Of a stretch of DNA of 64,000 nucleotides, positions 21,929 through 58,446 are shown piece by piece. Source of the stretch: Acinetobacter piscicola (lineage in GTDB: Bacteria; Pseudomonadota; Gammaproteobacteria; Pseudomonadales; Moraxellaceae); assembly GCF_015218165.1 (NCBI RefSeq), contig NZ_CP048661.1, positions 62,001 through 126,000 of the forward strand. The letters are read 5' to 3'. The notes beneath the pieces were generated by a model. It saw nothing but the letters and a program-made list of their open reading frames with translations, had not been told where the DNA came from and ran no database searches. The position numbers were made by a program, and so were the translations under genes. How positions within the stretch are numbered: the first letter of the stretch is position 1; every line of letters starts with the position of its first letter.

Positions 21929-23194
21929 TTAGGTTTCAGTTAAAAAATCAATATTCTGTTGAATCCGTGATTGAATCATCTGTAGGGTAGATTCTCGAAT
22001 TTGATGGGGATACAGGCGCTGCGCAATTTGACTAAATTGAAGTGCAATTTCACGCATGGTCAAGATGATCTCATCGACTTCTAGAGTAGTCAGATTAGCT
22101 TCTGAAGTACCGAGTTTATGTATGTCATTTCGGGAAATATTGAGCGCTTCTCCCATAATGTCCATTTGATGATAACCACCTGGACCCTCGCAGAAGGTCA
22201 CATCATAGGCTGGAGCCAATTTCCATTGACCATTTTTCTCCATGAGAAATGAAAAGTTCTTAGTATGGTCATCCCGATTATTGAAAAGCACATTAAACAC
22301 AGCACGTTTAAAAGCATGCAATCTTTCTCGTACATCTTGCGTACACATCAAGGTTGCCCGGAGAAAATTGCGATAGTCTAGGCTACCTGGAACTTTATAG
22401 TCTGCTCCTGTATATGCAGCCAAACTCTGCATTGGAATCCGCATACCATTTTGACGATCGAATCGTTTAGAAGCAAAAGCCGTTAAACCATTGGGCAAAT
22501 TAAAGAAATGGGTATCTGGAGTCTCAATTGCACAAAGTCGCAAACATTCTGCATAGACGGCTTCAATGGCGCAGACTTCAGGATGCTCTTGCTGAGCAGG
22601 AAACTTAATCAGCCAGGCTTCATGTTGATCAGAATCTTGAGTCGAAAACTCTAAATTGACAGGATCTCGGTAAACCAACGCTTTTGGTCTGGCACCTTGA
22701 GGGGAGCCACCCATGACCAATAAATGCTGTAGAAATTCACCACCTTCACCTTTGAGTACTTCTTGAACTTCCTGGGCCAGTTGTTGTAAAGGGATATTTT
22801 CTGAGGTTTGCATGTCAGCAACACAAGGTTCAAAGGAGAGGGCACCCATTGCGTGACTACTAATATAGGTCAGACGCTCCAAAGGTCCAATTCGTGCTGA
22901 ATTTAAGCCAATTTTTTTGAAATATCGATCCATCAACATCATGCCCCAACCATCTGGTAAAGCGTCATAGACTGGACCTGGGAGTCCCATTTGATGAGTA
23001 GGAAAACCTTGTCTGAATGGTAGACCTTTTAAAGGCAGCAAGTAAGAAGAGAGCTCAACACCTTGCTGTATTGCTTCTGGACTATATTCAAAAGCAATGG
23101 TGGGTCTACCTGTCGTGGCTGTTGAACTAATCAGCGTTCCCCATAACCATGATTCGCCCCAACCGTTGTAATAAACATTAAGTCTATTGAGCAT
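21929..23194 (-). CDS. hipA: HipA-like serine/threonine kinase toxin
   Basis: A 421-aa HipA-family kinase. In the family, HipA phosphorylates a translation component (GltX in E. coli) and induces growth arrest. Residues 1-110 are the HipA N-terminal domain. The kinase part has a Gly-rich loop (MGGSPQGARPKALV), HEAWLIKFPAQ with the ATP Lys, the catalytic NNRDDHTKNFSFL and the metal-binding APAYDVTF. All key residues are present. It overlaps the antitoxin stop by one base (TAATG), a typical coupled toxin-antitoxin layout. The substrate cannot be read from sequence. Confidence 0.88.
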   Translation of the reverse strand: MLNRLNVYYNGWGESWLWGTLISSTATTGRPTIAFEYSPEAIQQGVELSSYLLPLKGLPFRQGFPTHQMGLPGPVYDALPDGWGMMLMDRYFKKIGLNSARIGPLERLTYISSHAMGALSFEPCVADMQTSENIPLQQLAQEVQEVLKGEGGEFLQHLLVMGGSPQGARPKALVYRDPVNLEFSTQDSDQHEAWLIKFPAQQEHPEVCAIEAVYAECLRLCAIETPDTHFFNLPNGLTAFASKRFDRQNGMRIPMQSLAAYTGADYKVPGSLDYRNFLRATLMCTQDVRERLHAFKRAVFNVLFNNRDDHTKNFSFLMEKNGQWKLAPAYDVTFCEGPGGYHQMDIMGEALNISRNDIHKLGTSEANLTTLEVDEIILTMREIALQFSQIAQRLYPHQIRESTLQMIQSRIQQNIDFLTET

Positions 23195-23499
23195 TATCCC
23201 TTCCTCTTAATACGGTGGCGCTTACTTTGACTCTCATAGCGAAGAATGTCATTCACACTGTTAAGCTGAGGTTTAAATAGTTCCTGAAGTTCGTTTAATC
23301 GACCCAAGACCATTGCAATACGGACTAAATTTTCAACAGATACATTTCGTCCCGCTTCAAGATTCGAAACTGTATTCACGCCGACACCAGCGCGTGCTGC
23401 TACCTCAGCTTGAGACATCTCCAGAAAGAGTCGTTGCTTACGTAAACGCTCACCTAAAAGAGTCACAACTTCTTCTGGTTTAGTGAAATATAAATCCAT
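23194..23499 (-). CDS. hipB: HipB-like XRE antitoxin
   Basis: A 101-aa DNA-binding antitoxin and autoregulator, first gene of the pair. The helix-turn-helix reads LRKQRLFLEMSQAEVAARAG then VNTVSNLEAGRN. The basic tail RHRIKRKG ends just before HipA. It should bind its own promoter upstream of 23500 and neutralise HipA. Confidence 0.85.
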   Translation of the reverse strand: MDLYFTKPEEVVTLLGERLRKQRLFLEMSQAEVAARAGVGVNTVSNLEAGRNVSVENLVRIAMVLGRLNELQELFKPQLNSVNDILRYESQSKRHRIKRKG

Positions 23500-24419
23500 T
23501 AAATTGGGTCTTAAGAATGAATAATTTAATTAAATCACAAAATAATGGAATTAATCTATAGCTATAGTGTGGCTAAGGAGGGCTTTGTTGCACAGCACAT
23601 CAGAAGGGTAGGTATAGTCCTTGGGTATCGGTTACAGAAAATCATCAGGATGTACTTTGACTGATTGTTGATACGGAGATTTCAGTATTTTCATTTTTCC
23701 TAATAGGTCACATTACTTAGAAAGGGTTCTTCGAAAATTAGTTCATACTTTAAAAATCCTATAAATATTGAGGATATTTTCTTAATGCTTTCAATATAGC
23801 ATGCGGCTATATGTAACTCGAACGGGCTTAATCTGCCTTTCAGTATAAATTTTTTGGGCGTGAGAGGGGAGAGGTGTGAGGGCAAGCAATTTATATCGTG
23901 GATACTTCTAAATTACTTATGTAATAGAAGGTGGTAAACATGGATTTAGAGGTAATAACACTAAATATAAAAAAATTGGAAGAATAATTTATTAAATTAT
24001 TGTTTTTATGTGGTTATTGGTGATGTTATGAATAATAATAACTTTTTTCTTGATGAATTTTACCTAAAAAAATTGATCAGATAATTTTCTTTAAATGTCA
24101 TGCATACATAAATTTGACAGTTTGAAGGGATCGGTATGTGCATTTTTCACAAGGTTAAAGATCGACCATAAATGTGATAAACGGCAGAGGATCATTGAAA
24201 AATGAATGGATTTAAACACTACATGTATGCACGAAAAAAAGTATCGCTGCGGTTCTGCTGACAGGCTGTATTGAGCATTGAATGCAAATGATGTAGTAAT
24301 TGTCTACAGGCTATAGGACCAGCATGAAGAAGAATGAAATGTAGTTGCCAATTTATAACCTTGGTTGAAAAGCATAGCATTGTTATTCGGAGAAGTGAGG
24401 TAAGCCATCCTTCTCTTAT
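23500..24419. other. Long AT-rich stretch without a convincing gene
   Basis: The hipBA promoter must lie near 23500-23570. At 23582 GGCTTTGTTGCACA resembles an IS5-family end, followed on the minus strand by a short reading ending SPYQQSVKVHPDDFL and stop, perhaps a transposon remnant. A 61-codon minus frame at 23700-23885 has no family features. The rest looks like decayed DNA. Confidence 0.4.
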
Positions 24420-24677
24420 TCATTTAAAATGATTCTTACTCAACTGATCTCGACTCATGGGCTGGTTCCAATTAGACGGATAATAACTTCCATCCCCTAT
24501 CTTTTTCTTACCACATTTCTTGCATTTAATCCCTTCTTTGGAGATTTGATTCAGCATCACTGTTGTCGGTTGAATCAAATCAATGACATAGTTCGTTGGT
24601 TCAGGAAAAGCAGAAGAGGCTGCTTTATTGCAAAAGAGAACATTCGGATCAAATGGATTGGATTGCACAAAAGCCAT
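24420..24677 (-). CDS. Small hypothetical protein with a Cys pair
   Basis: An 85-aa frame with a possible half zinc finger, KCKKCGKKKIGDG, near residue 52. No family is recognised. The opposite strand is also open here, so the coding call is uncertain. Its neighbours are the hip and fic toxin loci. Confidence 0.3.
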   Translation of the reverse strand: MAFVQSNPFDPNVLFCNKAASSAFPEPTNYVIDLIQPTTVMLNQISKEGIKCKKCGKKKIGDGSYYPSNWNQPMSRDQLSKNHFK

Positions 24678-25026
24678 GATACAGCCACAGAGTAATTCAC
24701 CTGCATGTAATCTGTAACATCCATTCAGGTCATCAGACGAAGATTAATCTGAAATTTAAGCACTAAACGCCATAAATCTATGTATGGGCAGACTTTTTTG
24801 AGACATATGTTGATAAACATGCGGCAAGTTACATTGCTTAAAAGTCTATCTAAGTTAACGATCTATTCAATTCTGGATAAGTAATCTGAATATTACGATC
24901 CTAAATTACCCGAAGAGTATTAAGATTTCTAAGAATCGTGATTGTTGGTTTATTTGGGAAATTAATCAGTGGATTGAAGCAAAGATGATGGCTCATTAAG
25001 GATTGTGGGCTTCGACTACTTAAATT
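24678..25026. other. Intergenic stretch, no gene seen
   Basis: No supported frame, repeat or RNA gene was recognised between the small hypothetical gene and the fic stop. Confidence 0.4.
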
Positions 25027-25623
25027 TTAGGTATTTTGAATAAAGCATATTTCAAAAATCTTAATTAATGGATTTAAATTACCATAAAAACCTTCAATAT
25101 TGGCTTGAATCCATTGTTGTTGAGAGTCAATGCGAGACCAATCAATACCATAACCACAATGAGCAATCAGATGCTCAAAGAAAATCCGTTGTGTACGTCC
25201 ATTACCTTCACGGAATGGGTGTATGACATTAAGCTCACAATACAAGTCGGCAAGTTGAGGAATCAGTTGTTGTGGTGCTAAGCCTTGAAAGTATTTTTTT
25301 TCTTGAAGCGGTTTGAGTAGTTTATTGGTTTCAATTTCAATACGGGAAAAATTACAAAAACGGGTGTCACCTTTGGAAATATCGATTTGTCTTAACTTTC
25401 CTGCCCAGTCGTATAAGTCGCCAAAGAGCTGCGCATGAATTGATTTTAAGTATTGTAAGTCGTAAGGTGGTTCAGCATATTCAATTAAGTTACTTGCCAA
25501 TCCAGACAGTTCTAGTTCAGCTTATTCTAAAATTTGTTCATCATGAATATTGAGTTTGTTCTTTAGGATATTTGTGCCAGGGTAACAATACAGGCTGTCA
25601 CCCATTTCCCCATATTTATCCAT
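25027..25623 (-). pseudogene. fic: Fic-family AMP-transferase with internal stop
   Basis: A Fic toxin that would transfer AMP to targets through HxFx(D/E)GNGRxxR, here HPFREGNGRTQR. Reading from ATG 25623 gives MDKYGEMGDSLYCYPGTNIL, like the N terminus of E. coli Fic, but codon 34 is TAA (25524-25522) where relatives have Gln. The frame then continues intact to 25027 (SGLASNLIEYAEPPYDL onward). A single C-to-T change explains the stop. Restart at TTG 25500 would give a 157-aa protein with the active site but without the N-terminal region. Probably inactivated. Confidence 0.8.
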
Positions 25624-25635
25624 ACATGCACCTGA

Positions 25636-25803
25636 CTAAGTTTCGGGTTGCGAATACTTCTTATATTTTTGCAAGATTTCAGCTTTACTTTGTTGAGTTG
25701 TTTGAGCTGTCGTTGTAATGCCTTCAAGCTTTAGGCTGGCTTGATAGTTTTGCGCACGTGTCGCTTGAATATATTTTTTTTTCTGTTCAGTGGTTCTGAG
25801 CAT
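25636..25803 (-). CDS. yhfG: YhfG-family Fic antitoxin
   Basis: A 55-aa protein, MLRTTEQKKKYIQATRAQNY and QASLKLEGI, matching the pattern of E. coli YhfG (QKxxxWxxxRxxNFQASxxLEG). It ends 12 bp before the fic start. YhfG-like proteins bind Fic and block it. The antitoxin frame is intact while the toxin is broken, as expected when toxin loss is tolerated. Confidence 0.75.
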   Translation of the reverse strand: MLRTTEQKKKYIQATRAQNYQASLKLEGITTTAQTTQQSKAEILQKYKKYSQPET

Positions 25804-26077
25804 TTCGAAACTCCATTGATGCTACACGTGAAGTAAGTATAGCAGAGAATCTTTTTGATCAATGCTGCATACACAGCATTTCAAAATGTAATACAACGGT
25901 ATTGTTTCATGTAATAACAGAAAACTAAAAAAAAGTGGAAGAATTTTTAAAATTTAGACCACCCATGATAAGTAAACCATATGTATTTGTTGATAATTGT
26001 AATTTTGAGAAAATTTAGTTGATAAATTAAATGAATTTTAATATACAAAGATATGCTCATTTTTTATATCGATAAAA
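25804..26077. other. AT-rich gap before the recombinase module
   Basis: No gene is seen. It should contain the promoter of the three-gene recombinase module and, if that module is a mobile element, possibly its left end. I could not identify either by eye. Confidence 0.3.
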
Positions 26078-26542
26078 ATGTTAAAATTTGACTATTTAGT
26101 AAAAAATATAGAGATATTTATGGGGCAATTTATCATGCCCTTTTGCTTTGAGCGACAAAATGTTCAATTTAAGATAGTAAAAATTAACTCAGAACTACTG
26201 AAAATCAAAAAGATTAAACAGAGCCAGAAAGTAGTAGTACAAGCAAAGTTCAAAATAATCTATGTGAAAATTTGGCAAAAAATATTGCTATTAATGCAAA
26301 CGGAGCCATGCTTACGTGTACATTCTAATTATGTTGCAATCTTACAGTTGATACATAATCTTGATGATTTTATCGAAAAATCACAGCAACACTTGTGCTT
26401 TGAGAGAAAAGCTCAGAAAGAGCTGGATGCTAAATTTTTTGCTAGATTTTTTAAGCTGACAAAGAGTTCAATAAAAGATCAACTTTTACCAAATTGTTCA
26501 GATCGTAATGAATTTAACCAATGCAATTTGATAAAAAATTAA
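26078..26542 (+). CDS. Small basic protein, first gene of recombinase module
   Basis: A 154-aa Lys-rich protein with no recognised family. ATG 26120 (MGQFIMPFCFERQ) is an alternative start. The stop is 12 bp before the 779-aa gene, so they are probably co-transcribed. A small accessory beside two large recombinases recalls the TnpA/B/C set of Tn554-like elements, but there is no sequence evidence for homology. Confidence 0.5.
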   Translation: MLKFDYLVKNIEIFMGQFIMPFCFERQNVQFKIVKINSELLKIKKIKQSQKVVVQAKFKIIYVKIWQKILLLMQTEPCLRVHSNYVAILQLIHNLDDFIEKSQQHLCFERKAQKELDAKFFARFFKLTKSSIKDQLLPNCSDRNEFNQCNLIKN

Positions 26543-26554
26543 GCGAAAGCGAAT

Positions 26555-28894
26555 ATGCCAAAGATTGAAACAGAAGAGCAATTCTTAGATTTAGCAGAAA
26601 AATTCCAAAAAAATTATTGTTTATTACGCAATCATGTTGTGAATACACAATTTGTCGATCTATCAGATGATTTACGTGAAAAAGCCCATGCTCTATATAA
26701 GGAAGCACAACAGATATATGGCTATATATCTAGTTCTAGACAATTAGGTAAATATTATTATCTAGCTTCTTTAAGTTATTTTGCATGCCCGACTACTAGT
26801 AATACTCAAGAGCTGTCGTCTGAACGTTATTTGATTCTACAAGCGAGTTTTTTAACATATCGGCAGTATCAAGAATTTGCAAAAATTGATAAAGCTGAGA
26901 ATAAGCAAAAACATGTTTGTGATCTCTTTCGCTATGTATCACGATATGTTCTGGATTCTAATCATGCTGAATTATTTCAAGAATGCAGTGAGCTACTAAA
27001 TCGCTATGTCATGTACGAACGTAACTTGAAAAAGGAGGATCGTAATCAACTTTTTAATATTAAAGATTTCAAACAAGTACAAGCCATAGAGTATTTATCG
27101 GCTCTATTAATAATTTTTAAAAGACTTGATGATCGTCGTGTTGTTCATCGTCAGCGTAAGTCAAAAAAAAGTAAAGTTTTGCAATGGCCGACGAAAAATG
27201 AACTCAAAAAATTTCGTGAAATTAAAACGGGTAAGCAAGTAGATATTGGACATAACGCAAAGATCAGTATTTATGATGCCGCTCTTCACAAAGATGAAGA
27301 GGGTGAAGTTGATCTATTAGATCCTGAAATGGAGTTTTATTCAGAAGATGAAAAGTCTAAAAATTTAAATTATATACTCAGCGATAATGCGACGCATCTA
27401 ATGCGGCATCGCCAGCGCCGTCATGCTCCTTTTGTTACAAATCCACATTATTTGGCGCCAGATATACTGAAGCAAATTGTTTATGTGTTGAGAACCGAGT
27501 TATCCGGGCACTGGAGGGATGCTGCAATCGCTGCAGCATGTTTATTGTCACTTTTGACGGGATTATCACCCGTCGCACTGATGGATTTTAACGAGCTTAT
27601 TCAAGATGGAATTTTGATCCAGAATGGTTCAAGTAGACGTCGCGAATATTTACTCAAATTAAATCTTAAAATTACAGAGCAGAAGATTAAGAGCTTAAAT
27701 CATGTGCGGTGGAATGAAGTGATGACACATCAACTACATTTACCTTCTGCTTGGTTTGACTATATAGAACAAGCATCGAATCCACTAATTTCATCAACAC
27801 ACATTAATACGAAACTTAAGAATTGGCTTGATAATCGGTTTGTAGGTTCGATCACTGTAGAAAAACTGCAGGCTCAATTATATTTTCATATATATTATGA
27901 AACATATAATGAATATCTTGCTCATGTAATTGCTGGGCGGGATAGTCAGCATCACATGCCTGGTATCTATTATGGCGGGCTACCGAAAACTCAACTCAGT
28001 AGCACATATCTAGCCTTTTTAGAAAAAGCACTTACACCACATTCCACACATTTTACTGAAGACACGGCTGAACTAAAAATATTGCAACAACAATTCAAAG
28101 TGCAATCTGCATTATCTATAGGAAGGATAGGGAGCCAACTGGCACTTGAACCCAATTTTGTGAAAGAGCAATTCCATATTTTACATAGACATTGTCACGA
28201 AAACATCCAAGAAGATAAGCACATTATTAATCAACTTAATGCATATGCGTGTTGGATGTGGCATATCAGTTTGTTGAGTTTGGCAAGTCGGCCTAAAAAA
28301 AACCTGTTGGGGAATTTGGATGATTATTGTGTTGAGCTCAAGCTTTTATATGTGAATGATAAAAAAAATAGTAAAGCAAGAAAAGATGGTCGTTTTATCC
28401 CTTTATCTGATTTTTTCATAAAAACACTGCAAAATTACACTGCCTTTTTAGAACAAATTATTGAAGCGTACGGTTCATTTTTTAGACAAGTCTTTGCAAA
28501 GAAGAAGATAACTGTAAATGATCTTTTTGGTAAGGTCATTTTTAGTAAAGATATCTTGCCGATAACTGTCAAAGAATGGCAGAGCAGGAAAATTAAGTTA
28601 ATCCCTTTATCGAGAAAATGGGTGAATTCATATATGCAAGGAGTCTTTCCAAAGAATATGTATTCGAATTGGTTACGTCATTTTGACATGAACTTTTTGA
28701 TGCATGAGCAGCAAGAGGGTAAACCAGCATTAGCTTTTCACTTAATTCAGGCCCTGTATGGTCATGACCAACGTGACCGAGAGGCTTTTCATCCGCATTC
28801 TTCACTTATCCCGAATGTCTATGTACAGCAAGCCCGCCAGCAATTGCAAGATAATGTCAAATCTTTATCGATTAAACACTTAGAGCGAAAATAG
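26555..28894 (+). CDS. Large protein resembling a degenerate tyrosine recombinase
   Basis: A 779-aa protein. The C-terminal half has the layout of a tyrosine recombinase: ACLLSLLTGLSPVALMDFNE resembles box I (TGLRxxEL) but lacks its Arg. SNWLRHFDMNFL and ALYGHDQRDREAFHPHSS resemble box II with the later His region, and VYVQQA could hold the Tyr. The N-terminal half has no known domain. It may be a partner that lost full catalysis. It lies 4 bp before the next large gene in one operon. Confidence 0.55.
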   Translation: MPKIETEEQFLDLAEKFQKNYCLLRNHVVNTQFVDLSDDLREKAHALYKEAQQIYGYISSSRQLGKYYYLASLSYFACPTTSNTQELSSERYLILQASFLTYRQYQEFAKIDKAENKQKHVCDLFRYVSRYVLDSNHAELFQECSELLNRYVMYERNLKKEDRNQLFNIKDFKQVQAIEYLSALLIIFKRLDDRRVVHRQRKSKKSKVLQWPTKNELKKFREIKTGKQVDIGHNAKISIYDAALHKDEEGEVDLLDPEMEFYSEDEKSKNLNYILSDNATHLMRHRQRRHAPFVTNPHYLAPDILKQIVYVLRTELSGHWRDAAIAAACLLSLLTGLSPVALMDFNELIQDGILIQNGSSRRREYLLKLNLKITEQKIKSLNHVRWNEVMTHQLHLPSAWFDYIEQASNPLISSTHINTKLKNWLDNRFVGSITVEKLQAQLYFHIYYETYNEYLAHVIAGRDSQHHMPGIYYGGLPKTQLSSTYLAFLEKALTPHSTHFTEDTAELKILQQQFKVQSALSIGRIGSQLALEPNFVKEQFHILHRHCHENIQEDKHIINQLNAYACWMWHISLLSLASRPKKNLLGNLDDYCVELKLLYVNDKKNSKARKDGRFIPLSDFFIKTLQNYTAFLEQIIEAYGSFFRQVFAKKKITVNDLFGKVIFSKDILPITVKEWQSRKIKLIPLSRKWVNSYMQGVFPKNMYSNWLRHFDMNFLMHEQQEGKPALAFHLIQALYGHDQRDREAFHPHSSLIPNVYVQQARQQLQDNVKSLSIKHLERK

Positions 28895-28898
28895 TTGT

Positions 28899-29819
28899 AT
28901 GCAAAAAATCAAAGAACTAATAAAACCACAACTAGATGATCTATTTGTTGATATTCATAAAATGGTGAAAAAGTCGCTAGATAGACAGCCTTCTCCACCT
29001 GAAGTATTGACGAAAGAAATGCAGCAAAAACTTGATCAGCAGATCGCTGAAAAATGGCATGACATTAAAGATAGTGTTGATTGTTTGAGTCAAAAGTTGA
29101 GCCGAGACGAACAATCAAAACTGATGCAATTTACTGAAGATGAATTTAATAAAAGAAGGAAGCAATTCAACCAGAATGTAGATAAAAAATCATACAGAAT
29201 TAAGCTAAATCCACATACTAAACGGATCGTACTGCCTAGAAAAATTGAGAGTACAGAGTCACGGTTAGAACAGGGGCATCTACATATCCATGTACTTAAG
29301 GAATTAAGGCAGTATTGGCAAGATTCATTTGAATATTGGAATGAACCAAAGTACTTATGGGGAAATTTATGCTTAAGTTTTATATATATTTCAGGCTGTG
29401 CAGATGAACAGCATTTGATTGCTATTCAGAAGCAATTGCAGGAGGCCATTGAGCTTGGTACAGATCTGAATTGTTTTCGGTTATACCATTCGGACTACAA
29501 AAAAATCACTAATCCATTGTTACTACATTATCGTGTTGAAAACTCTCAATATGGCAACGATGTAGAACAGGGAAAGTTGTACCAATGGAAACATGTTTTT
29601 TTTAACCCATATGCGCAGTTCATTTTGCAATATTTAAAAAAGTTGAAAGCTACTCAGAAAGAATTTTGTCTGCAACATTCAGTTGAAGATTGTATTTTAG
29701 AAAGCTTGAGTAAGATAGGCAGGAAAAAAAGTCTTGGGGATCTGCAATATCAAATTAAACGCCGTGGATTTCGTGCATTTAATGATGTGCAAATGGTACT
29801 CGAATTTAATCCAAACCTC
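28899..29819 (+). pseudogene. 5' part of a ~1066-aa tyrosine recombinase, split by IS3
   Basis: The first 307 codons of a gene broken at 29820 by an IS3-family element with a CTC target duplication. Removing the element and one CTC joins ...FNPNL in frame to SIDIFLSNVLQQ at 31105. This part is helical and charged (KIKELIKPQLDDLF, LDQQIAEKWHDIKD) with no catalytic box. The open frame as it stands runs 12 codons into the IS. Confidence 0.75.
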
Positions 29820-31101
29820 AGAGATGGATCCGGAAATTTGAACAACTCCTATAAGTGATACTCTGCTCCTCAAATGATGTTATAAACATCAATATATGGA
29901 GTATTTTATGGCACGTAGACCAAGAAGAAATCATTCAAACGACTTTAAGGCTAAGGTAGCACTTGCTGCGATCAAAGCAGAAAAAACACTTGCTGAATTG
30001 AGTTCTGAGTTTGATGTTCATCAAAACCAAATTATTGACTGGAAAAATCAATTGATCTCAGCTTCCTCACAAGCTTTCGATCAATCAAAAGCTCCATCAG
30101 AACCTCCCATTGATCTTAAAAAGTTACATGCAAAAATCGGTGAGCAGGCATTAGAAATTGATTTTTTAGAAGGTGTGTTGAAGAAACTGGGCCGCTTCAA
30201 CCACAAAAGTTAATCGATCACTCACTTCAGATTTCAGTATCTAAACAAGCTAAGTTACTGAAAGTCTCTCGTGGTTGTTATTATTATCGCCCAAAACCTG
30301 TTAGCTCATCAGATCTGAAGCTGATGCGATGTATTGATGAATTACATATGCAATATCCTTTTGCAGGCAGTCGTATGATGCGTGATTTGTTGAATCGTCA
30401 AGGGCATCATATAGGACGACGTCATACACGTACTTTAATGAAGAAAATGGGTATTCAGGCGTTATATTGCAAACCAAATTTAAGCCAGGCTAATCAAGCT
30501 CACCGTAAATATCCATATCTGCTCAAAGGATTGGCTATTCAGCGCAGTAATCAAGTGTGGTCTACTGATATAACGTATATCCCTATGGCAAAAGGCTTTG
30601 TTTATTTATGTGCTGTGATTGATTGGCATAGCCGCAAGGTACTTGCGCATAGGGTATCGATTAGTATGGAGGTGGATTTTTGTATTTCGGCTTTAAATGA
30701 AGCGATTGAAAAATATGGATCACCTGAAATATTGAATACAGACCAAGGCAGTCAGTTCACCAGTGATGCATTTATTGATGTATTGAAATCAAATGGCATT
30801 CAAATCAGTATGGATGGTAAAGGTCGATGGGTAGATAATGTGATGGTTGAACGATTATGGCGGAGCGTTAAATATGAAGAGGTGTATCTCAAAGCTTATA
30901 GCAGTGTCACAGATGCGAAAAAGCAATTGAGTGCATATTTTGAGTTTTATAATCTGAAACGACCTCATTCGAGTCTAGACAAAATGACACCAAATGAGTT
31001 TTACTATGATCAGCTACCCCAACAAAACAAGGTGGCTTAACTAGAGCGGAATATCACTTATAAATACGCTTTTAGTTGTTCAAACAAGTGGAACCACCTC
31101 T
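29820..31101 (+). mobile_element. IS3-family element, copy 2
   Basis: 1282 bp, starting AGAGATGGATCCGG, flanked by CTC duplications (29817-29819 and 31102-31104). The predicted proteins are identical to copy 3 at 45473, which is inverted relative to it. Confidence 0.9.
29908..31040 (+). CDS. IS3-family transposase OrfAB
   Basis: OrfA is 29908-30213; OrfB follows by -1 frameshift to 31040, with VWSTDITYIPM, NTDQGSQFTSDAF and WVDNVMVERLWRS. It is a close relative of the product at 20582. Confidence 0.9.
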
Positions 31102-31104
31102 CTC

Positions 31105-33384
31105 AGCATAGATATATTTTTGAGTAATGTGCTTCAGCAAGAGATTAATACTGTTGCTTTAAGGCCATCCGAATTTAGATTGCTGTGGAATAATGATTAC
31201 AATCAAGTCACAGAACCAGATAATCGCCCTATTCATTTTGAACAAGAGCAGTTACTTCCTGAAGTTCCGACTGTTCAAAGCAAATTACAAACGATTCCGT
31301 ATGAGTTGATGTTGTTTGGTCAAAAGAAACGTAAAGGTCAAAAAGTTGAGCGTTTAGATAAAAAGAGGAATAAAGAAGAACGCACGCTACGTTTTTGGCA
31401 AGAAACTAGAAGGGTGTTAGAGGAGAAGATAGTTGATGCTAATACGGAGGAAAAGTCTTTAATTGATGCTCAACTACGCTTAATTCACTGGTTAATGCAT
31501 TTAAAAAAACGAGGGCTTCAATTATCAACTATTGAAAGCTACTTAGGATCGTTTGGCAAAGAATTTATATTTGAGATTTGGCTCAATAAATTAGATTTAA
31601 AGCAACAATCCATAGATGACTATGAGGATTTATATCGGCAGCTATTGAAATACAGCAGTGAACGTGATGAAAAAGCAGTTCAACGAGATTCGGTGAAAGG
31701 AAAAACCTCTCGTAAGATGCACCAAAGCGCAGAATACCGTTTTGGTCGCCTAAAAGATTTTCATCAATTCTGTATAGAGAATTATGATGCTCCAGGGGTA
31801 TTGGTGTTACAGAATTCAAGTTTTAAGCATTTACAAATTTGCAATGCACGGCTAGTGAGTCCTTTGCTATTTGGCAAATTATTGGAAAAACTAGAAAATT
31901 TAAGTCAAGAGCCAACGGCATCAGAGTGGGTCGATCATCTGAGTTGTTTAAAGCTGATGTATTTACTAAGTTATAGAACTGGACTTCGATTAAATGAAGT
32001 TCGTTGTCTTAAAATACAAGATATTATTTGCCCAGAGCTACTTTATAAAGAAAAAGAAAATACAGTTTTTAATAATATCACGCTTCATATCCAAGACAAT
32101 TCATATCGCCGTCTGAAAACGCGAAGTGCGAATCGTCAAATACCATTGAAAATTGCATTGTCAGAACATGAGTTTTTAGTAGTACAACGTTACATACAAC
32201 ATCGTTATGAGCAATATTTGGTTAATCAGCAGGATGATCTACTTTTTAGTGTGAATCATCGTGTATTAACTGATCAATGTATCAGCAAAATTACAGTAGA
32301 TTTGTTTAGTCAAATATTAGGTATGCATCATGGCTTTAGTTTTCATACATTACGCCACAGTGCTGCTAACTATCTAGCAATAACTTTGCTCGGTTCAAAA
32401 GAAATGATCAAGACCTACACAGATTGTCCTTGGGTAAAAGCAAAAAAGATGAGGGATTTATTGTTTGGTATGAAAGCACGTGCTCAAGAAGAGATTATTC
32501 AACATAAATGGCAGGTGCTCGCCTCTTGGATGGGGCATAGCAGTATTGAGCAAACGGCTTCAAATTACCTTCATGTTTTGGATTTATTAGCAGTCGATCG
32601 AATTTATAATTCGCCGTGTATCATTTCAAAAAAAGTATTAGAACAGTGTTTTAGTCCAGTGAAGTCAAGTACAGACTACATAAACCTAAATCGTTATACT
32701 CAGCAGCAGAAATGGTTTAATTCTTATCAGCAAACACAGCCAGTTACGATTGCTGGCCGACAAGAAAAGAAGTTTAGTATCGAGAAGAGTAATCTGACAC
32801 CTTTTCAACGTTTGATAAGTTTTAGAGAAGGTCGTTTAAGCGAAGATACCCAAGCTCAAGAATGGATGCAACGATGTCAATGGATGAGCACTAAATGGAT
32901 GGATCGCCAAAAATTTAATTTAAAAACGAATTATGTTTATAGTAAGAATTTAGAAGAGAGTTGGTTTGATGAACTTTACGAAAAGGCTAAAAAACTGACT
33001 CGTCCAGATGAAATAATTCCTCTCCTTGATTTTCATTATAAAGATGATAGGCAGCAAGATGCACTGAAAGAAAAGAACATGGTTAAGGCGCTTAAAATAT
33101 TATTATTATTTGGAAAACTGCGTAAGAATTTTCTACATTTTCAATGCCGAATGAAAGGTGATGAGCAACAAATTGTTAATTTTATTACTGGTATAGAGCC
33201 AATGTTAGGAGATCATCTGTATTTAGAAAAACAAAACTACCCAGTTAATTTGGATGCTCCTGAGCGAACCGTTATATTTAGTTTTCAAAGAGTTGTCGGC
33301 TCTAACAAAAAAAATGTTACTCCGCTGGTTATATTTAATTTAATGTTAAAAATGATGCAAAAAGATGAACTCTGGATCAAATAG
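31105..33384 (+). pseudogene. 3' part of the split tyrosine recombinase, with catalytic domain
   Basis: 759 codons in frame with the upstream part. The tyrosine-recombinase residues are all visible: Arg in SYRTGLRLNEVRCL, HTLRHSAANYLA (His-x-x-Arg), LASWMGHSSIEQTASNY with the His and the candidate nucleophile in NYLHVLDLL. About 270 residues follow the catalytic domain, unusual for integrases. A start at TTG 31120 could give a 754-aa protein with the whole catalytic domain, so residual activity is possible. Confidence 0.7.
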
Positions 33385-57012: not shown

Positions 57013-57832
57013 GGCACTGTTGCAAATAGTCGGTGGTGATAAACTTATCATCCCCTTTTGCTGATGGAGCTGCACATGAACCCATTCAAAGGCCGGCATT
57101 TTCAGCGTGACATCATTCTGTGGGCCGTACGCTGGTACTGCAAATACGGCATCAGTTACCGTGAGCTGCAGGAGATGCTGGCTGAACGCGGAGTGAATGT
57201 CGATCACTCCACGATTTACCGCTGGGTTCAGCGTTATGCGCCTGAAATGGAAAAACGGCTGCGCTGGTACTGGCGTAACCCTTCCGATCTTTGCCCGTGG
57301 CACATGGATGAAACCTACGTGAAGGTCAATGGCCGCTGGGCGTATCTGTACCGGGCCGTCGACAGCCGGGGCCGCACTGTCGATTTTTATCTCTCCTCCC
57401 GTCGTAACAGCAAAGCTGCATACCGGTTTCTGGGTAAAATCCTCAACAACGTGAAGAAGTGGCAGATCCCGCGATTCATCAACACGGATAAAGCGCCCGC
57501 CTATGGTCGCGCGCTTGCTCTGCTCAAACGCGAAGGCCGGTGCCCGTCTGACGTTGAACACCGACAGATTAAGTACCGGAACAACGTGATTGAATGCGAT
57601 CATGGCAAACTGAAACGGATAATCGGCGCCACGCTGGGATTTAAATCCATGAAGACGGCTTACGCCACCATCAAAGGTATTGAGGTGATGCGTGCACTAC
57701 GCAAAGGCCAGGCCTCAGCATTTTATTATGGTGATCCCCTGGGCGAAATGCGCCTGGTAAGCAGAGTTTTTGAAATGTAAGGCCTTTGAATAAGACAAAA
57801 GGCTGCCTCATCGCTAACTTTGCAACAGTGCC
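57013..57832 (+). mobile_element. IS26, copy 2
   Basis: 820 bp, identical in protein to copy 1 and directly repeated with it. It truncates the XerD-like gene to its right. Confidence 0.96.
57076..57780 (+). CDS. tnpA: IS26 transposase
   Basis: A 234-aa intact IS6-family transposase, identical to the product at 54849. Confidence 0.96.
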   Translation: MNPFKGRHFQRDIILWAVRWYCKYGISYRELQEMLAERGVNVDHSTIYRWVQRYAPEMEKRLRWYWRNPSDLCPWHMDETYVKVNGRWAYLYRAVDSRGRTVDFYLSSRRNSKAAYRFLGKILNNVKKWQIPRFINTDKAPAYGRALALLKREGRCPSDVEHRQIKYRNNVIECDHGKLKRIIGATLGFKSMKTAYATIKGIEVMRALRKGQASAFYYGDPLGEMRLVSRVFEM

Positions 57833-58446
57833 AGTTTTATTACGAACGTGTTTTGGGTGGACAACGGAAAACATATTTCATCGAAAGACCAAAAAAAGAA
57901 AAAACACTTCCTGTTGTGATGAGTGAAGAAGAAACCATTCGGGTACTACGCGCTATTGAAAACGTGAAACACAAGGCTATTCTGATGACTATTTATTCGG
58001 CAGGTTTGCGCATTTCTGAATGTATAAACCTGAAAATAAAAGACATTGACTCCAAGCGCATGCAAATTCGTATAGAACAGTCAAAAGGAAAAAGAGATCG
58101 TTATACCATTTTATCTGAGAAAACATTAATTATTTTAAGAACATACTTTATGGAATATAAACCAAAAGATTATTTATTTGAAGGTCAAAAAGGTGGCGCA
58201 TACTCAAGCCGAAGTATTCAAAACATTTTTAAAGCAGCTGTTTTAAAAGCAAAGATTCAAAAGGAAGTTACTGTACATACCTTACGACATAGCTTTGCAA
58301 CGCATTTGCTTGAGAATGGTACGAGTTTACGTTATATTCAATCGTTGTTAGGTCATTCAAGCAGTAAAACAACTGAGGTTTATACACATATTACCACCAA
58401 GGGAATGGAACAATTAAAAAGTCCGATGGATTTGTTAGATATATAG
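57833..58446 (+). pseudogene. XerD-like tyrosine recombinase, 5'-truncated
   Basis: The ~204 C-terminal residues of an integrase: IYSAGLRISECINLKIKDID (Arg), TVHTLRHSFATHLLE (His-x-x-Arg), SLLGHSSSKTTEVYTHI (His, Tyr). The catalytic residues are present but the N-terminal SAM-like domain is removed by IS26. Low GC, Bacteroidota-like. It sits upstream of a tet(X), the known XerD-tet(X)-res-ISCR2 arrangement. Confidence 0.85.

What the first reader, a model, noticed from the sequence alone, without database searches (positions are those of the whole stretch)
26078..33384. Three-gene module with two very large tyrosine-recombinase-like proteins
After removing one IS3 and its CTC duplication, the third gene is one ~1066-aa frame with a complete tyrosine-recombinase catalytic set and ~270 extra residues behind it. 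The gene before it (779 aa) looks like a relative lacking the box I Arg. A small basic protein precedes both. Paired active and degenerate recombinases with an accessory recall Tn554-type elements, but sizes and sequences do not fit those I know. This may be the core of a little-described mobile element.
Basis: partly seen in the sequence, partly recalled or inferred. Interest (0 to 1): 0.75.

Follow-up and report, generated by a model that had tools for sequence, protein, structure and literature searches.

The report
Paired giant recombinases beside site array
A three-gene DNA-recombination machine, found almost only in Acinetobacter, sits beside a short row of matching DNA sites whose neighbouring sequence has been cut and swapped many times at the same base, hinting at a little-known way for plasmids to trim and rebuild their cargo.

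Summary
The trio is real. A has 154 aa, B 779 aa, and C about 1066 aa; C is split by an IS3 here, and intact copies exist elsewhere. B and C are both tyrosine recombinases. B does have a box I Arg (R579, 24 of 24 aligned). B was found in 254 of 72,556 plasmid records, all Acinetobacter, and in 51 of 119 Acinetobacter genomes, some copies chromosomal.

The new observation lies just left of the given coordinates. A short site (core about 30 bp, ATAAC...TGGAAGAA) forms the trio's left edge (25,914) and recurs in direct orientation upstream (23,955), bounding toxin-antitoxin units (hipBA, yhfG-fic). Across the loci held, three site types have 11, 14 and 13 different left flanks, all joined at the same nucleotide. 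For 17 usable joints an uninterrupted partner was found: A follows the joint in 16, a purine precedes it in 16. Seven joints are order-preserving deletions.

I infer that the trio recombines site edges with loosely matched DNA. It is not a Gamma-Mobile-Trio by the curated models tested. No right end, unit reordering or excised circle was seen, chromosomal trios lack this site, and the link between trio and joints is inferred.

The parts
21929..23499 (-). hipA-type toxin gene (21929-23194) and HTH antitoxin-type gene (23194-23499): the hipBA unit; its own left site is not next to it in this window
   Evidence: ORFs; names from the identical region of L001; the S_hip site of this replicon lies at G000:C3:147109
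23955..23984 (+). site S_fic, core ATAAC...TGGAAGAA; left edge of the fic unit
   Evidence: 0 hits in 5 shuffles
24420..25803 (-). fic unit: 85-aa ORF (24420-24677), Fic-family ORF (25027-25500) and, by alignment to L001, yhfG (about 25636-25803)
25914..25943 (+). site S_trio, left edge of the trio; upstream DNA differs between plasmids
26078..26542 (+). gene A, small basic protein, 154 aa, no family hit that reaches a cut-off
26555..28894 (+). gene B, 779 aa, tyrosine recombinase catalytic domain at about 529-773
28899..29858 (+). gene C, 5' piece (reading frame runs into the insertion sequence at its end)
29896..31040 (+). ORFs of the IS3-family insertion (ISAba14-type name) that splits C
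31120..33384 (+). gene C, 3' piece with the tyrosine recombinase catalytic domain
   Evidence: Pfam PF00589 2.2e-8

Best explanation
A-B-C encodes a two-recombinase DNA-rearranging machine with one small accessory protein. On this plasmid lineage its target is a short site (core ATAACNNNAAANNNAAAANAANTGGAAGAA) that forms the left edge of the trio and of each toxin-antitoxin unit upstream. B and C cut at the left edge of a site and join it to a poorly specified partner (purine|A). When the partner lies further left on the same molecule the DNA between is lost, so the left boundary of the array is repeatedly re-set and neighbouring genes are trimmed or replaced. Shown: genes, fold and catalytic residues; direct-repeat sites; joints at one nucleotide to many unrelated sequences; order-preserving deletions. 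Inferred: that the trio makes these joints, that B and C act together, and that A helps.
For: B and C have recombinase folds and conserved catalytic residues. The site is the left edge of the trio and a like core is kept beside trios whose B is only 42-44% identical (L002, L167, L168, L169). Sites repeat in direct orientation upstream. Distinct 11-mers left of the edge: S_hip 11, S_fic 14, S_trio 13. In 17 usable joints the uninterrupted partner has A after the joint in 16 (P 8e-8) and a purine before it in 16 (P 2e-4). Seven joints keep gene order and read as deletions leftwards from a site edge: L100, L104 (two), L101 against L098, L121 against L186, L174, L232. In the two complete plasmids tested, the other half of the partner is absent (0 of 2).
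Against: No experiment links the trio to the joints. The commonest state is stable: 48 of the S_trio sites held follow the fic-unit end and 28 of the S_fic sites the hip-unit end. In CP121366 a deletion that removed a trio has neither end at a site edge. Among the loci scanned, the 25 chromosomal stretches (L013-L017, L048-L067) show no such site, so chromosomal trios must use something else. Flanks of one origin occur in several loci, so flank counts are not event counts. C contacts with the site are not shown; in 2 of 24 sequences B has Phe for the catalytic Tyr.
Confidence: 0.5

Rival explanations
1. The units are separate mobile elements with a common left end. The trio unit is autonomous and the hipBA and fic units are non-autonomous relatives; each inserted beside the next, and the variable left flanks are insertion points, some later eroded.
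For: The hipBA and fic heads are 74% identical over 232 bp, as relatives would be. Trios occur in many places, including chromosomes. Other units with the same core exist: L167 (1,587 bp), L207 and L224.
Against: No right end was found. In the two complete plasmids tested, the other half of the partner is missing, and seven joints are simplest as deletions.
Confidence: 0.25
2. The joints are made by something other than the trio, such as plasmid transfer functions, insertion sequences or general recombination acting at a fragile AT-rich site; the trio is a neighbour with another job such as plasmid resolution.
For: 196 of the 254 plasmids with B are typed mobilizable, many IS copies lie around, and one deletion at the same locus is not at a site edge.
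Against: The joint is at one nucleotide in three site types, sites lie beside trios, also on a 3.17-Mb contig (L172), and the core is kept beside distant trios. Left flanks such as L172 and L105 are internal IS sequence, not IS ends.
Confidence: 0.2

Closest known systems
Gamma-Mobile-Trio (GMT) islands, GmtX/GmtY/GmtZ (Mahata et al. 2024; paper not held, known from a citing passage in PMC12715929, and recall)
   Same: Three-gene module with a tyrosine recombinase that marks mobile islands in gammaproteobacteria
   Different: No Gmt model is listed for A, B or C in the NCBIfam scans; GmtY (NF040693, 441 positions) gave no match over its cut-off in the window's genome and none at the trio. That GmtX and GmtZ models are in the same library is recalled
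Strand-biased circularizing integrative elements (SE: intA, tfp, intB, srap; PMC10214605, passages)
   Same: Several adjacent recombinase-fold proteins, one element end next to the operon; found in gammaproteobacteria
   Different: SEs have four core genes between inverted repeats of 13-19 bp (paper); here three genes, the small one first, and no inverted copy of the left core was found. No SE protein was compared by sequence
GInt, RIT and Tn554-type elements (passages of PMC10214605; otherwise recall)
   Same: Two or three tyrosine-recombinase-type proteins in a row
   Different: Not compared by sequence; GInts carry four genes and RITs three recombinases according to the passages, while A has no recombinase match here
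Integrons
   Same: Mirror-image layout: recombinase operon, adjacent site, then gene units each ending in a related site, toxin-antitoxin cargo
   Different: Two large recombinases instead of IntI, no attC-like folding, no reordering of units seen
pdif modules of Acinetobacter plasmids, including GR13 plasmids (PMC9455709, passages and section 28)
   Same: Site-bounded toxin-antitoxin modules in Acinetobacter plasmids; the paper lists HipA- and Fic-like toxin genes as most abundant among toxin-antitoxin families
   Different: No sequence within 5 mismatches of a recalled pdif consensus in the window or L001. Whether the paper's core recombinase tyr13 is gene C or the neighbouring arm-type integrase was not settled

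Membership tests
Tyrosine recombinase superfamily (C) | Catalytic R-K-H-R-H-Y set and fold | tested here: met
Tyrosine recombinase superfamily (B) | Catalytic fold and residues | tested here: met
Gamma-Mobile-Trio | GmtX, GmtY and GmtZ homologues over the curated cut-offs | tested here: not met
   No Gmt model among hits at E up to 1 or 5; NF040693 over cut-off in 0 of 1 genome. GmtX and GmtZ models not searched one by one
Strand-biased circularizing integrative elements | Four core genes intA-tfp-intB-srap | tested here: not met
   Three genes in another order; definition from passages of PMC10214605
Strand-biased circularizing integrative elements | Imperfect inverted repeats at the two ends | tested here: inconclusive
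   No inverted copy of the left core at up to 9 mismatches in the 15 sequences scanned; right end unknown
RIT / Tn554-type / GInt | Homology to their recombinases | not tested
   No reference sequences were fetched
Integron | IntI-family integrase | tested here: not met
   No integron-integrase hit for intact C; only a distant relative, L004 C, had a weak hit (TIGR02249, 6e-4, cut-off 265 bits against 19)
Integron | Single-strand-folding attC sites | tested here: not met
   z-scores from -1.9 to +1.9 in six folds
Integron | Exchange of cassettes between positions | tested here: inconclusive
   Usual order hip-fic-trio; other units in L167 and L207 only; no reordering seen
pdif module | 28-bp XerC/XerD sites at the module ends | tested here: not met
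   0 in the window and L001 at up to 5 mismatches; L098 and L174 one weak match each, away from the sites; consensus recalled

The most novel reading that the evidence does not exclude
This is an independent, integron-like cassette system: a pair of giant tyrosine recombinases, each with a dead and a live recombinase-like domain, plus a small helper, captures, stores and trims one- or two-gene toxin-antitoxin units at direct-repeat sites next to the operon, with a partner requirement as short as two bases.
Probability: 0.2. Interest if true: 0.9.

Novelty: new variant of a known kind. Interest (0 to 1): 0.62.

Why it matters
It would add a recombinase system to plasmids shared by clinical and environmental Acinetobacter, and would explain why the variable region beside it breaks at one nucleotide. 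A tyrosine recombinase pair that joins a fixed edge to almost any partner would bear on how such enzymes choose targets, and gives a testable comparison with integrons.

Tried and rejected
Tn554-like pair with one dead partner: dropped, because B keeps a catalytic set. Gamma-Mobile-Trio: dropped on the model tests. Insertion of chromosomal copies into tRNA-Gly: the right part of the L063 and L049 hipBA stretch holds a tRNA-Gly anticodon-arm-like sequence, but comparison with L069-L074 gave no clean empty site. attC-like folding: no. A fixed right end: homology downstream of C stops at +48, +175 or +220 in different plasmids; the +48 stop in L105 is followed by IS-like sequence. Phage origin: no match of C in 50,697 phage records and no site in viral contigs, although one PHROG family (33072) has the length and sequence of C. 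Chromosomal trios: another sequence (AAAAANACTATATATAG, 6 hits of which 2 overlap, 0 in 3 shuffles) lies at the left of some; not pursued. PDB sequence searches with both profiles: nothing. Weak B-like hits in 3 of 228 other genomes of the class; two of the three loci also hold a second large ORF; NCBIfam gave only generic recombinase hits. PADLOC: nothing relevant. Literature searches: no listing or passage that I saw describes this trio or these sites; the library lacks most subscription papers.

Full report
What is there. The window lies at C3:62001-126000 of an Acinetobacter-genus genome; C3 has 148,815 bp. Genes A (26078-26542), B (26555-28894) and C (28899-33384) run in one direction, and C is split by an IS3-family element. 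In plasmid NZ_CP130330.1 of A. variabilis, 99.9% identical over the 85% of the queried stretch that aligns, C is one gene of 1066 aa.

Distribution. tblastn of B: 254 of 72,556 plasmid records, all Acinetobacter, 214 with at least 80% cover. 51 of 119 Acinetobacter genomes have a match, several with more than one and some on contigs of megabase size; the window's genome has four places. In the class sample 3 of 228 other genomes gave weak hits. B is followed by C in most loci read; exceptions are L055 (no C) and loci broken by insertions. L049 has two trios in tandem, and plasmid pE47_002 (L230) has two trios (the second by gene lengths and order).

The site array. In plasmids with different upstream DNA, conservation starts at one point, window 25,913/25,914. 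In one search, 8 of the 60 rows listed do not start at the first query base: seven start at 431-435, that is at this edge, and one at 12. The sequence there has direct-repeat relatives upstream: window 23,955, L001 14,878 and 17,478 (first base A of AATAAC), L104 6,673 and 8,477, and others (0 hits in 5 shuffles; 3, 2 and 1 chance hits at the looser threshold). The sites bound units: hipBA (about 2,600 bp) and 85aa-fic-yhfG (about 1,959 bp). These two heads are 74% identical over 232 bp, while the trio's site shares 34 bp at 82%. 203 plasmids match the fic head and 198 the trio's left 165 bp, all Acinetobacter. 28 of 119 genomes match the head at E up to 0.001, ten of them only by short matches. 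With up to 3 mismatches the reversed-pattern control also rings, so only close matches count. A scan of the GTDB contigs found 31 stretches, 29 in Acinetobacter.

The joints. Over all loci held, S_hip has 11, S_fic 14 and S_trio 13 different 11-mers left of the same edge. Some are variants of one flank, and one plasmid can be held in several loci. Uninterrupted versions of the left flank were found for 21 joints, 17 usable: A follows in 16 and a purine precedes in 16; P 8e-8 and 2e-4 from window base composition. The shared run is longer in some, up to ATAAC in L104. Seven joints keep gene order and read as deletions from a site edge leftwards: L100 and L104 into the fic unit, L104, L174 and L232 into the hip unit, L101 (148 bp, hip and fic units lost, against L098) and L121 (against L186). 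The other half of the partner is absent from both complete plasmids tested, pE47_002 and CP121366. Against this, CP121366 also shows a deletion from the fic unit to 94 bp before the C stop, with neither end at a site edge. L207 has a fragment that looks like hsdR (my reading, not searched) between a site and S_trio, and L167 has another middle unit; these are the only hints of capture.

How it may work. I infer that B and C cleave at the site edge and exchange with a weakly matched partner. The layout (operon, adjacent site, units each with a related site at the far end) is a mirror image of an integron, but the integron tests were not met or inconclusive. Separate mobile units with a common left end remain possible. 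Chromosomal trios in the 25 stretches scanned do not show this site.

Against what is known. The GR13 plasmid paper (PMC9455709; passages and section 28) attributes diversity to pdif modules and insertion sequences and names a core recombinase tyr13 that I could not identify with gene C. The SE paper (PMC10214605; passages) describes other multi-recombinase elements. GMT is known here only through a citing passage, recall and NCBIfam.

Verdict. A real, widespread, poorly described recombinase trio with an unexpected site array and one-sided joints; filed as a new variant of the multi-recombinase kind, with a cassette-system reading at about 0.2.

Noticed in passing
G000:C3:26576-28918 (L011), G000:C1:1782883-1785180 (L013), G000:C1:3697172-3699373 (L015): Three further divergent B genes in the same genome, each followed by a C; two are on the 3.86-Mb contig.
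   Followed up: partly
L015 4684-11172: Next to a chromosomal trio lie genes that look like a PAPS-reductase/DndC-like protein, an 1157-aa protein and a 294-aa protein, possibly a defence module (names by eye, no search).
   Followed up: no
L173 2523-5516: Several ORFs of 81 aa with the same first 40 residues, repeated just left of a site array.
   Followed up: no
L049, L056, L052 upstream of the trio: The same upstream flank, with a gene for a 104-aa protein, leads to three different chromosomal trio types, as if they shared an insertion point.
   Followed up: partly
window 25027-25500: The Fic-type ORF is 157 aa here but 198 aa in L106 and L173, so the window copy may be shortened.
   Followed up: no
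window 57820-58446: A 208-aa ORF with a weak match to the C profile and to GmtY (generic recombinase); the right part of the window has several G+C-rich blocks that were not examined.
   Followed up: no
L179 7401: A degenerate S_trio followed about 54 bp later by another site, as if one site had landed in the other.
   Followed up: no
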